From Clostridia bacterium (GTDB taxonomy: Bacteria; Bacillota; Clostridia; RUG12999), in assembly GCA_022801925.1 (NCBI GenBank), contig JAAWTG010000011.1, forward strand, positions 1 to 64,000: a DNA stretch of 64,000 nt, given 5' to 3'. A program made the translations under genes and the position numbers. This document shows positions 20,563 through 55,555 of the stretch, one piece after another; the first letter of the stretch is position 1, and every line of letters starts with the position of its first letter. The notes under the pieces are model-generated. The model ran no database searches. It was not told the origin of the DNA and saw only the letters and a program-made list of their open reading frames with translations.

Positions 20563-20863
20563 TATTGCGGTGCTGGGAGACAGGGACAGCGTTTTGGGAT
20601 TTGCCGCGCTGGGACTGGATATTTTTCCGGTGCAGGACGCGGCACAGGCACAGCAGCAATTCCGGCGGCTTGCCGGCGGCAGCTATGCAGTGATTTATGT
20701 GACGGAAGCGGCGGCAGAGTGGCTGCAGGAGGAGATTGACAAGGTGCGTGTGCAATTGACACCGGCGGTCATTTTAATTCCTGGTACGCAGGGAAACACT
20801 GGTGAAGGAATGCGGAGCGTACACCGCTCTGTGGAGCAGGCAGTCGGATCTGATATTCTATAA
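20555..20863 (+). CDS. ntpG: V-type ATP synthase subunit F (NtpG)
   Basis: The 102-residue central-shaft subunit starts MYNIAVLGDRDSVLGFAALG, the Rossmann-like N-terminus typical of the family, and has the ILIPGTQGNTG segment near the C-terminus. I chose the ATG at 20555, which overlaps the end of ntpC, instead of an upstream in-frame start. The stop codon lies inside a TATAAT sequence at the left edge of the structured repeat that separates it from ntpA. Confidence 0.92.
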   Translation: MYNIAVLGDRDSVLGFAALGLDIFPVQDAAQAQQQFRRLAGGSYAVIYVTEAAAEWLQEEIDKVRVQLTPAVILIPGTQGNTGEGMRSVHRSVEQAVGSDIL

Positions 20864-21197
20864 TAGAGTTTTCTCGAAAGGGGGACTTCTTCCGGCTCGT
20901 TTTACTCGCCGTCATGCCGTCCCCCTTGTCGGAATCCCCTTAAGCAGCGTTCTTCGCTCGCGCATCGTGCCGCATAGCGCGGCACTCCGAACGCTGCAGG
21001 GTATCAAATCTTCGGCGCCTGTCCGAAGATTTGATGATTAAAAAGTTTAGAATTTTCTGCTTTTCGGTACTTTTTTCTTCCGCTTCACTGTGCATAAAAA
21101 CGCGCGGCAGTCGGCGGAGATGCACGAAATAATACCAATTTGCTTCGTAGATTGGTATAATAGAAACGGAGTTTTCTCGAAAGAGGGACTTCTTCCG
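20859..21197 (+). repeat. Dispersed structured element, copy 2 (long form), inside the ntp operon
   Basis: This gene-free stretch of about 340 bases carries four hairpins. H1 is GGGGGAC (20880-20886)/GTCCCCC (20919-20925). H2 is GCAGCGTTC (20944-20952)/GAACGCTGC (20989-20997), with GTGCCGC/GCGGCAC inside. H3 is ATCAAATCTTCGG (21003-21015)/CCGAAGATTTGAT (21023-21035). The core hairpin is CTGTGC/GCGCGG (21088-21093/21102-21107) with loop ATAAAAAC, then GCACGAAAT (21122-21130). A 29-bp direct repeat with one mismatch flanks it (20866-20894 and 21169-21197, period 303), each copy preceded by TATAATAG (20859, 21156). Copy 3 shares the same order of hairpins. Confidence 0.75.
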
Positions 21198-21230
21198 AAA
21201 CGCCGGGAATTTGGTAAAAATGAGGATGTG

Positions 21231-53460: not shown

Positions 53461-53515
53461 AAACTACAAAAAAAGATTGATTCCCGCAATGCCTTGTGAT
53501 ATAATTATAACACGA

Positions 53516-53731
53516 GGGGGACTTATTCCGGCTCATTTTATTCGCCGTCATACCGTCCCCCTCGTGGACACCCCCGTGCAGCCGCGTTCGCTCATGCCAC
53601 GTTCCTACCGAAACGCTCGCGGCTGTAAGGTATGAAATCTTCGGCACGTGTCCGAAGATTTCATGAAACTGAAAGTGCCTACGCCTCGCCGCGCATAAAA
53701 CACGCGGGTCGATGGAGAAGCACGAAATGAC
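53516..53731 (+). repeat. Dispersed structured element, copy 3 (long form), upstream of trpB
   Basis: This copy has the same hairpin order as that at 20880-21161. H1 is GGGGGAC (53516-53522)/GTCCCCC (53555-53561), with the same 32-nt loop length. H2 is CAGCCGCG/CGCGGCTG (53579-53586/53618-53625). H3 is ATGAAATCTTCGG (53632-53644)/CCGAAGATTTCAT (53652-53664). The core stem GTGC (53675-53678)/GCAC (53720-53723) encloses CCGCG/CGCGG (53689-53693/53703-53707) with loop CATAAAACA, then GCACGAAAT. It ends about 60 bases before the trpB start. Paired bases differ from copy 2 but remain paired. Confidence 0.75.
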
Positions 53732-55011: not shown

Positions 55012-55109
55012 ATATAAGGAAATGAATACTTTGGGAATCTGTCTATCGTATATCTAGATGGGTTCTTCAAACTGGAGTCCAGAGGGGGGGAACACCTTCC
55101 ATAAAATAT

Positions 55110-55160
55110 GCGAAAAGTCAGGACATACCCTCTGGGGCACGCGTGTGCCTGACTTTTTGC
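55110..55160 (+). terminator. Terminator after trpB
   Basis: GCGAAAAGTCAGG (55110-55122) pairs with CCTGACTTTTTGC (55148-55160), with one mismatch. The T run lies within the right arm. It follows the trpB stop by about 100 bases. Confidence 0.7.
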
Positions 55161-55166
55161 ACCTTG

Positions 55167-55336
55167 CGGGACGCGCCTCCCGCAGGAGGTGGTTCGGAGC
55201 AGTATCCCTGCGACGAACTTCCAACGCATGAAATGAGGGTTTTATGCTTTCCTTACGTCCCGTTCTAGGGGAGCCCATCGTGTGCCCGGAGGGTGCGAGG
55301 GGGACATGAGACTGCTTTACAGGCTCTGAAGTCCCC
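55167..55336 (+). ncRNA. Candidate structured RNA between trpB and the recombinase
   Basis: A closing stem CGGGACG (55167-55173)/CGTCCCG (55256-55262) encloses three hairpins. These are CCTCC/GGAGG (55176-55180/55185-55189), GTTCG/CGAAC (55192-55196/55214-55218) with GCAG/CTGC inside, and GCAT.AAA/TTTATGC (55226-55247). The result is a four-way junction of 96 nt. A separate hairpin GGGGGAC (55299-55305)/GTCCCC (55331-55336) follows. There is no open frame. It does not match tmRNA, SRP RNA, RNase P or group II intron domain V that I can recognise. It may be a leader of the recombinase gene or an independent RNA. Confidence 0.5.
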
Positions 55337-55405
55337 TTCGTGATAGCTTGGTGTCATATCCCTTTCTCGTTGCCGCATAAAATGGTACAAAGGGGGGCGG
55401 CAAAG

Positions 55406-55555
55406 ATGAAACGGGAATTTGTGGTGCATGAAATTTATATCAATCAACAAGCGGACAGAAAAAAGGCGGCGTTAGAACTTTGGCGCAGAGCAAATGCGGC
55501 TGTGCAGCGCGGGGAGGGAAGCGTACCATGCGATGTGCCATTTATTGCAGACTGA
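55406..55555 (+). CDS. Small protein overlapping the recombinase gene
   Basis: A 49-residue charged protein (starting MKREFVVHEIYINQQADRKK) starts at 55406 with AAGGGGGGCGG upstream, a good ribosome site. Its last 28 bases overlap the recombinase gene in another frame, so the two are translationally linked. Small basic proteins coded next to large serine recombinases can act as directionality factors that switch the enzyme to excision; that role is only a suggestion here. Confidence 0.6.
   Translation: MKREFVVHEIYINQQADRKKAALELWRRANAAVQRGEGSVPCDVPFIAD

What the first reader, a model, noticed from the sequence alone, without database searches (positions are those of the whole stretch)
55167..55336. 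Compact four-way-junction RNA candidate upstream of the recombinase
Seven-pair closing stem, three internal hairpins and a separate GGGGGAC/GTCCCC hairpin fill the gene-free space before the small ORF and recombinase. It could gate recombinase expression in response to a ligand or act as a separate RNA. It does not match structures I know.
Basis: inference. Interest (0 to 1): 0.58.

Follow-up and report, generated by a model that had tools for sequence, protein, structure and literature searches.

The report
Nested mobile hairpin repeat, not riboswitch
The folded RNA seen here is one copy of a repeated, jumping set of hairpins in an uncultured gut bacterium; its four-armed shape arose because a smaller hairpin repeat landed inside a larger one, and the larger repeat belongs to an undescribed family found in several groups of Clostridia.

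Summary
The fold is real, but it is part of a roughly 310-nt insertion (55036-55347) that is absent from the orthologous trpB-recombinase locus of both sister genomes, which carry a terminator-like hairpin there. The insertion is one copy of an interspersed repeat (leader, H1, A, B, C hairpins). The four-way junction is unique to this copy: 12 of 13 copies have one arm inside the closing stem, this one has three, because a 51-nt double-hairpin repeat replaced 7 nt. 18-nt micro-hairpin repeats sit in the loop of A and, inverted, before C.

The A-B core is a strongly covarying structure shared by Clostridia of several families (24 of 28 pairs with double changes). It matches no Rfam family, is mostly multi-copy, and inserts at terminator-type hairpins, with 11-31-nt duplications at 5 of 10 loci. 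No Y1/RAYT transposase was found in the three richest genomes. Ligand gating of the recombinase is not supported. Best reading: a new family of modular, non-autonomous hairpin elements, akin to BOX/RUP/SPRITE, moved by an unknown enzyme.

The parts
55036..55347 (+). whole inserted element; the orthologous locus in G001 and G002 has 30-odd nt (a terminator-like hairpin) here instead
55073..55100 (+). H1 hairpin (CTGGGGTT..GGAAGGGG..CCCCTTCC in other copies; degenerate in this copy)
55109..55161 (+). hairpin A (H2): stem 55109-55122/55148-55161 around conserved GGACA..YGTGCC loop; its 3' arm resembles an intrinsic terminator
55126..55143 (+). 18-nt micro-hairpin repeat TACCCTCTGGGGCACGCG inserted in the loop of hairpin A
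55167..55262 (+). hairpin B (H3), the four-way junction of the finding; one-armed in the 12 other copies tested
55174..55224 (+). nested 51-nt double-hairpin repeat that adds two of the three arms; stands where other copies have GAAAACC; 98% identical stretch at G000:C69
55277..55295 (-). second micro-hairpin, inverted, before hairpin C
53510..53675 (-). related A-B-C element upstream of trpB, no micro-hairpin
   Evidence: 157.2 bits
20874..21046 (-). related A-B-C element between two ORFs of an operon (V-type ATPase genes by recall)
   Evidence: (175.7 bits)

Best explanation
The region is one copy of a non-autonomous, interspersed hairpin element of Clostridia (5' leader, H1, A, B, C, often a last hairpin H5) that inserted into the hairpin of the trpB terminator in this lineage only. 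Two kinds of smaller hairpin repeat then landed inside it: an 18-nt micro-hairpin (two copies, opposite orientation) and a 51-nt double hairpin, the latter turning one-armed hairpin B into a four-way junction. Shown: repeat nature, empty sites, nesting, covariation, terminator-type sites, long direct repeats at half of the loci. Inferred: the moving form is recognised as a single strand (RNA or ssDNA) by its loops (GGACAUGUGCC or GGGCGUGUACC in A, GCGA in B). An enzyme acting in trans cuts host hairpins with a variable stagger, so part or all of the hairpin is duplicated. At this locus the element, whose A hairpin resembles a terminator, now stands in for the lost trpB terminator. It is not a specific regulator of the recombinase.
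For: Own-genome DNA search: 48 matches to the region in one genome at E<=10, many from sub-modules. Of 60 relatives, only the 3 genomes of the genus gave matches below 1e-3. Window copy absent in G001 and G002. Flanks of 8 further loci were searched: 5 of 8 gave an empty orthologous site (C31, C92, C48, G001 C114, and the double hairpin of C69). Nesting: 12 of 13 copies have a one-armed B, the window copy three arms; 36 A-type hairpins were found in the fetched loci, with and without the micro-hairpin; the orthologous element C87/G001:C11 has two micro-hairpins in G000 and none in G001. Covariation: A1 24 of 41 pairs, A2 10 of 63, A3 24 of 28 with changes on both sides. Direct repeats of 11 nt or more at 5 of 10 independent loci against 1 of 90 mismatched flank pairs, permutation p 1e-4; a perfect 29-nt one in G041. 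G.U outnumbers A.C mismatches on the element strand, 29:8 and 18:8.
Against: No mobility enzyme was identified. Half of the loci, the window's included, have no direct repeat, and at the window's own site about 30 nt were lost. None of 16 A-B-C-type copies has a flanking repeat above 10 nt. All key genomes are drafts. Presence or absence is polarised by two sister genomes only, so secondary loss in both is possible for the window copy, though less economical. Transcription was not measured.
Confidence: 0.85

Rival explanations
1. A cis-regulatory RNA (riboswitch or attenuator) controlling the small ORF and recombinase, as first proposed.
For: Stable fold, position upstream of the recombinase, terminator-like hairpin inside.
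Against: Absent from both orthologous loci, recombinase kept; copies elsewhere sit by unrelated genes; the junction is unique to one of 13 copies; no Rfam match.
Confidence: 0.03
2. REPIN-like or IS200/IS605-derived MITEs moved by a Y1 (RAYT) transposase as single-stranded DNA.
For: Hairpin-rich, intergenic, strand-asymmetric pairs; Y1 genes exist in G026, G041 and G017, which also carry the element.
Against: 0 Y1_Tnp matches in G000, G001, G002, the genomes with most copies; direct repeats of variable length are not expected of IS200/IS605-type insertion (recalled).
Confidence: 0.12
3. RNA-mediated (target-primed, SINE-like) insertion using a reverse transcriptase in trans.
For: Compensatory evolution and G.U bias of one strand; variable-length direct repeats; terminator preference recalls group IIC introns (recalled).
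Against: The only reverse transcriptase found in G000 is retron-like, beside a ThiF gene; G041 and G017 have none at E<=1e-5; no group II intron RNA found by Rfam in the loci scanned.
Confidence: 0.2
4. Host-beneficial terminator or mRNA-stabilising RNA modules spread by recombination rather than by transposition.
For: Sites at terminators, terminator-like hairpin A, very low rate of broken pairs.
Against: Copies at unrelated sites with direct repeats and empty sister sites look like insertions; nested copies in loops.
Confidence: 0.15

Closest known systems
BOX / RUP / SPRITE repeats of Streptococcus pneumoniae (PMC3049150, passages and section 5 read; PMC10969869, passages read)
   Same: small modular interspersed repeats with stem-loop structure if transcribed; a review says these elements insert into one another; SPRITE resembles a Rho-independent terminator
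   Different: A-B core with cross-family covariation, host terminator hairpins as sites, variable 11-31-nt repeats, 18-nt micro-hairpin layer; different host class; no sequence match tested against them
REP / REPIN with RAYT (PMC3116915, passages read)
   Same: short palindromic extragenic non-autonomous elements
   Different: no Y1 transposase in the three element-rich genomes; multi-hairpin, 200-nt architecture
Small dispersed repeats of Nostoc (Elhai 2008; cited in papers seen, the paper itself not held; content recalled)
   Same: very small mobile hairpin repeats nested in other repeats
   Different: different hosts and sequences; comparison rests on recall
Repetitive or double hairpin elements of mitochondria (PMC2800124, abstract read)
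   Same: hairpin repeats invading intergenic regions
   Different: mitochondrial; described there as structurally and compositionally divergent
Group IIC introns
   Same: insertion at intrinsic terminators (recalled)
   Different: no intron RNA match; the family's loci give no group II hit in Rfam

Membership tests
Riboswitch or other known Rfam class | match to a covariance model | tested here: not met
   window at gathering score: only a tRNA; 44 source scans over searches gave no supported match over the elements (T-box and glycine riboswitch hits lie elsewhere)
Riboswitch | conserved upstream of the same gene | tested here: not met
   absent in 2 of 2 orthologous loci
REPIN/RAYT | Y1 transposase in the genome | tested here: not met
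   0 in G000, G001, G002; present in G026, G041, G017; genomes are drafts
Small interspersed repeat of BOX/RUP/SPRITE kind | multi-copy, mainly extragenic, modular, structured | tested here: met
   extragenic position inspected for the window copies and several loci, not counted for all
Small interspersed repeat of BOX/RUP/SPRITE kind | sequence homology to BOX, RUP or SPRITE | not tested
   no such sequences were compared
MITE of a DD(E/D) insertion sequence | terminal inverted repeats | not tested
   none seen by eye at the ends; no formal test
MITE of a DD(E/D) insertion sequence | target duplication of fixed length | tested here: not met
   lengths 11, 13, 17-21, 20, 29, 31, or none
Group II intron derivative | domain V or intron RNA match | tested here: not met
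   no Rfam match

The most novel reading that the evidence does not exclude
A previously undescribed family of mobile structured-RNA elements is scattered through Clostridia of several families. It is held together by selection on its single-stranded fold, not its sequence; it finds host terminator hairpins by structure, copies itself in and duplicates the hairpin, using an enzyme unlike Y1 transposases; and it serves as a landing site for still smaller hairpin replicators of 18 and about 50 nt, giving a nested community of RNA-shaped parasites.
Probability: 0.3. Interest if true: 0.85.

Novelty: new variant of a known kind. Interest (0 to 1): 0.6.

Why it matters
It turns an apparent one-off RNA into a natural experiment: a structured element with empty sister sites, known targets and nested younger insertions. 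Because the A-B core is conserved by compensatory changes across families, the recognising factor probably reads a folded single strand, which makes the question of how hairpin repeats without their own enzyme move directly testable. It also warns that a striking multi-branched fold in intergenic DNA can be made by repeat nesting.

Tried and rejected
Rejected: recombinase-linked riboswitch (empty sister loci); known Rfam class; phage or plasmid element (0 phage matches; the 10 listed of 53 plasmid matches lie over trpB only; 0 viral contigs for an exact 21-mer); Y1/RAYT mobilisation as first choice; retron-like reverse transcriptase as the mover. A long-range pairing of the A-loop insert with the stretch before C was considered; both stretches are copies of the micro-hairpin in opposite orientation, present together in 3 of 12 A2 copies, the right one alone in 1, neither in 8, so pairing is possible but not needed. 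Co-direction of elements with upstream genes was looked at and left out as ambiguous. The class-wide search with R1 scored only 6 candidates per genome and missed genomes found, so its 5 of 391 is a lower bound. One search cut some hairpins wrongly by a loose pattern; one search replaces it. Literature searches for a prior description found none, within an open-licence library only. Fetched but not analysed: L114, L115, L116, L117, L118 and most of L126-L138.

Full report
What was claimed and what is there. It lies between a trpB-like gene (PALP domain) and a small ORF plus a serine recombinase (Resolvase, Recombinase domains). Rfam at gathering scores finds only a tRNA in the whole window.

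It is a repeat. A DNA search of the window's own genome with 55013-55420 gave 48 matches at E<=10; the best run over most of the region at 73-86% identity, and many cover single modules. Among 60 relatives, only the own genome and its two genus mates gave matches below 1e-3 (45 of 60 had some match at E<=1, outside the genus only tiny ones). An exact 21-mer of one module was found in 10 stretches of a bacterial genome collection, all in two uncultured Clostridia MAGs, one of them labelled iMGMC (a mouse-gut catalogue, by recall), and in no viral contig; contig numbers and lengths indicate that these MAGs are G001 and G002. With up to 3 mismatches it occurs 16, 24 and 8 times in G000, G001 and G002, with 0 for the reversed control.

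It was inserted here. G001 and G002 have the same trpB, small ORF and recombinase (trpB side 96% and 90% identical), but in place of 55036-55347 they have about 30 nt, GGGGCTTTCTACAAAAGGAAAGTCCC followed by a T-rich run in G001, a terminator-like hairpin. Flanks of 8 other loci, joined without the element, were searched in the three genomes (flanks of 14 had been printed). Five of the 8 gave an empty orthologous site: C31, C92, C48, G001 C114, and the double-hairpin repeat at C69; two (C87, C42) are filled in G001, one (C5) gave one flank only. The four empty H-type sites and the window's site all hold a terminator-type hairpin (5 of 5, by inspection). Of the 10 independent H-type loci, C73 and G001 C26a showed no such hairpin beside the element.

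Anatomy of the element. Aligned copies share a leader, H1 (CTGGGGTT..GGAAGGGG..CCCCTTCC), A (long stem around GGACA..YGTGCC), B (closing stem CGGGACG/CGTCCCG), C (GAGGGGGAC..GTCCCC), and in some copies a final hairpin H5. In 13 copies I folded hairpin B alone: 12 have one arm inside the closing stem, only the window copy has three. The extra arms come from 51 nt, 55174-55224, standing where other copies have GAAAACC. The same double hairpin is present at C69 (98%) and, with changed stems but the same GA/GA and TATCC positions, elsewhere: 6 matches in all, 2 in each of the three genomes, 0 in the other 57 of 60. So the four-way junction is a nested repeat.

A second nested layer. The loop of hairpin A holds an 18-nt micro-hairpin, TACCCTCTGGGGCACGCG. 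The fetched loci contain 36 A-type hairpins with or without it, and 52 micro-hairpins in 14 variants. Some lie outside A loops, in tandem or in other modules. The clearest case is orthologous: the element at G000:C87 has one micro-hairpin in the A loop and another, with a different stem, in hairpin C, while its ortholog at G001:C11 reads straight through both points. The window copy has two, in opposite orientation.

It evolves as a folded strand. For 15 A-B-C elements RNAalifold gave 41 pairs, 24 with at least one compensatory double change; for the 12 copies of the window's own subfamily 63 pairs, 10 such. Counting pairs found independently on both strands, G.U outnumbers A.C 29:8 and 18:8 on the element strand. 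This favours selection on that strand as single-stranded nucleic acid, with the caution that copies share ancestry.

It is wider than the genus. A covariance model of the A-B-C form (R1) found 42, 41 and 23 places in G000, G001 and G002 (only 43 candidates were scored per genome, so the first two at least are lower bounds), and weaker ones in G026, G041 and G017, which belong to other families; 54 of 60 genomes had none. A scan of 391 class genomes with 6 candidates each gave 5 genomes, adding G304. An alignment of 13 elements from six genomes supports a common A-B core: 28 pairs, 24 with changes on both sides, 95.9% of cells paired against 69.1% shuffled and 31-42% when slid (the structure was drawn by me on this alignment, which favours it, but hardly to this extent). 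A is a 13-bp hairpin with loop GGACAUGUGCC or GGGCGUGUACC: where the first loop base is A the last is G (7 rows) and where it is G the last is A (6 rows), 13 of 13 (read). B is a three-way junction whose small hairpin has loop GCGA in 12 of 13 (read). A core model (R3) found 7 of 128 class genomes, in 6 genera, five of the 7 multi-copy; G042 (7 places) and G081 (1) were not in the model and show the same A loops. No Rfam family matched these elements; nearby T-box and glycine riboswitch hits are separate.

How it moves. At 10 independent loci of the window's subfamily, 5 have direct repeats scoring 11 or more next to the ends (13, 20, 17, 11, 31), pieces of, or whole, host hairpins; only 1 of 90 mismatched left-right flank pairs does, permutation p 1e-4. 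At the C47 locus the G002 copy has a 29-nt repeat instead of 20. In G041 a copy is flanked by a perfect 29-nt repeat of a complete hairpin, and in G026 by a 25-nt one with 3 mismatches; the other 7 of 9 distant copies show none above the control's maximum of 11. The other five loci of the window's subfamily, the window's among them, have none, and none of 16 A-B-C-type copies does. Repeats of changing length do not fit a transposase with a fixed stagger. The three genus genomes lack any Y1 transposase match. Their reverse transcriptases are few: in G000 a single retron-like one beside a ThiF gene. G041 and G017 carry the element with no reverse transcriptase at E<=1e-5. The enzyme is therefore unknown.

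What it probably does here. The insertion removed the hairpin that follows trpB in the sister genomes. Hairpin A reads as a terminator-like site on the + strand, 55135-55150 and its T-run, so the element may serve as the new terminator (inference). Nothing links it to the recombinase beyond position.

Comparison. In what it works like, BOX/RUP/SPRITE of pneumococcus are nearest: modular, structured, inserted into one another (PMC3049150, passages and section 5; PMC10969869, passages). Membership in those named families was not tested by sequence. Membership in REPIN/RAYT fails on the transposase in these genomes. No earlier description was found by ten text searches, which cover an open-licence library only.

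Verdict. Observation confirmed; ligand-gated recombinase RNA not supported; the true feature is a nested, mobile hairpin repeat whose core is an undescribed, covarying structure spread through Clostridia.

Noticed in passing
window 20861-21215: Another A-B-C element, antisense, sits inside what looks like a V-type ATPase operon (gene names recalled), with a second partial hairpin C-like end about 300 nt away.
   Followed up: partly
window 53510-53675 and L048/L068: Upstream of trpB both G000 and G001 carry an A-B-C element at nearly the same place but with quite different stem sequences, while G002 has a different hairpin: either two insertions at one site or stem replacement.
   Followed up: partly
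A3 alignment, loop of hairpin A: First and last loop bases swap together, A/G in 7 rows and G/A in 6 of 13, suggesting a non-canonical A.G pair under selection.
   Followed up: no
window 55126-55143 and 55277-55295: The two micro-hairpins occur together in 3 of 12 copies, the right one alone in 1, neither in 8, and could pair with each other; linked gain or a structural role is unexplained.
   Followed up: partly
L164 (G000:C8), 273-2382: Retron-like reverse transcriptase about 290 nt downstream of a ThiF/E1-like gene, a possible defence pair; G001 has a reverse transcriptase of the same open-frame length and near-equal score.
   Followed up: partly
L031 (G000:C69) and L083 (G001:C19): Very small hydrophobic ORFs with a nearby terminator-like inverted repeat, resembling type I toxin-antitoxin loci; hairpin repeats lie at their ends.
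   Followed up: no
G000 contigs C77, C89, C95, C96: Several repeat copies lie within about 300 nt of contig ends, so these repeats may break short-read assemblies.
   Followed up: no
L044, L084, L086, L095: A further repeat module (AAGAAAAGTAAGAGGAGGA .. GGAGGACATTTTC around a variable hairpin) recurs next to micro-hairpins, sometimes in tandem.
   Followed up: no
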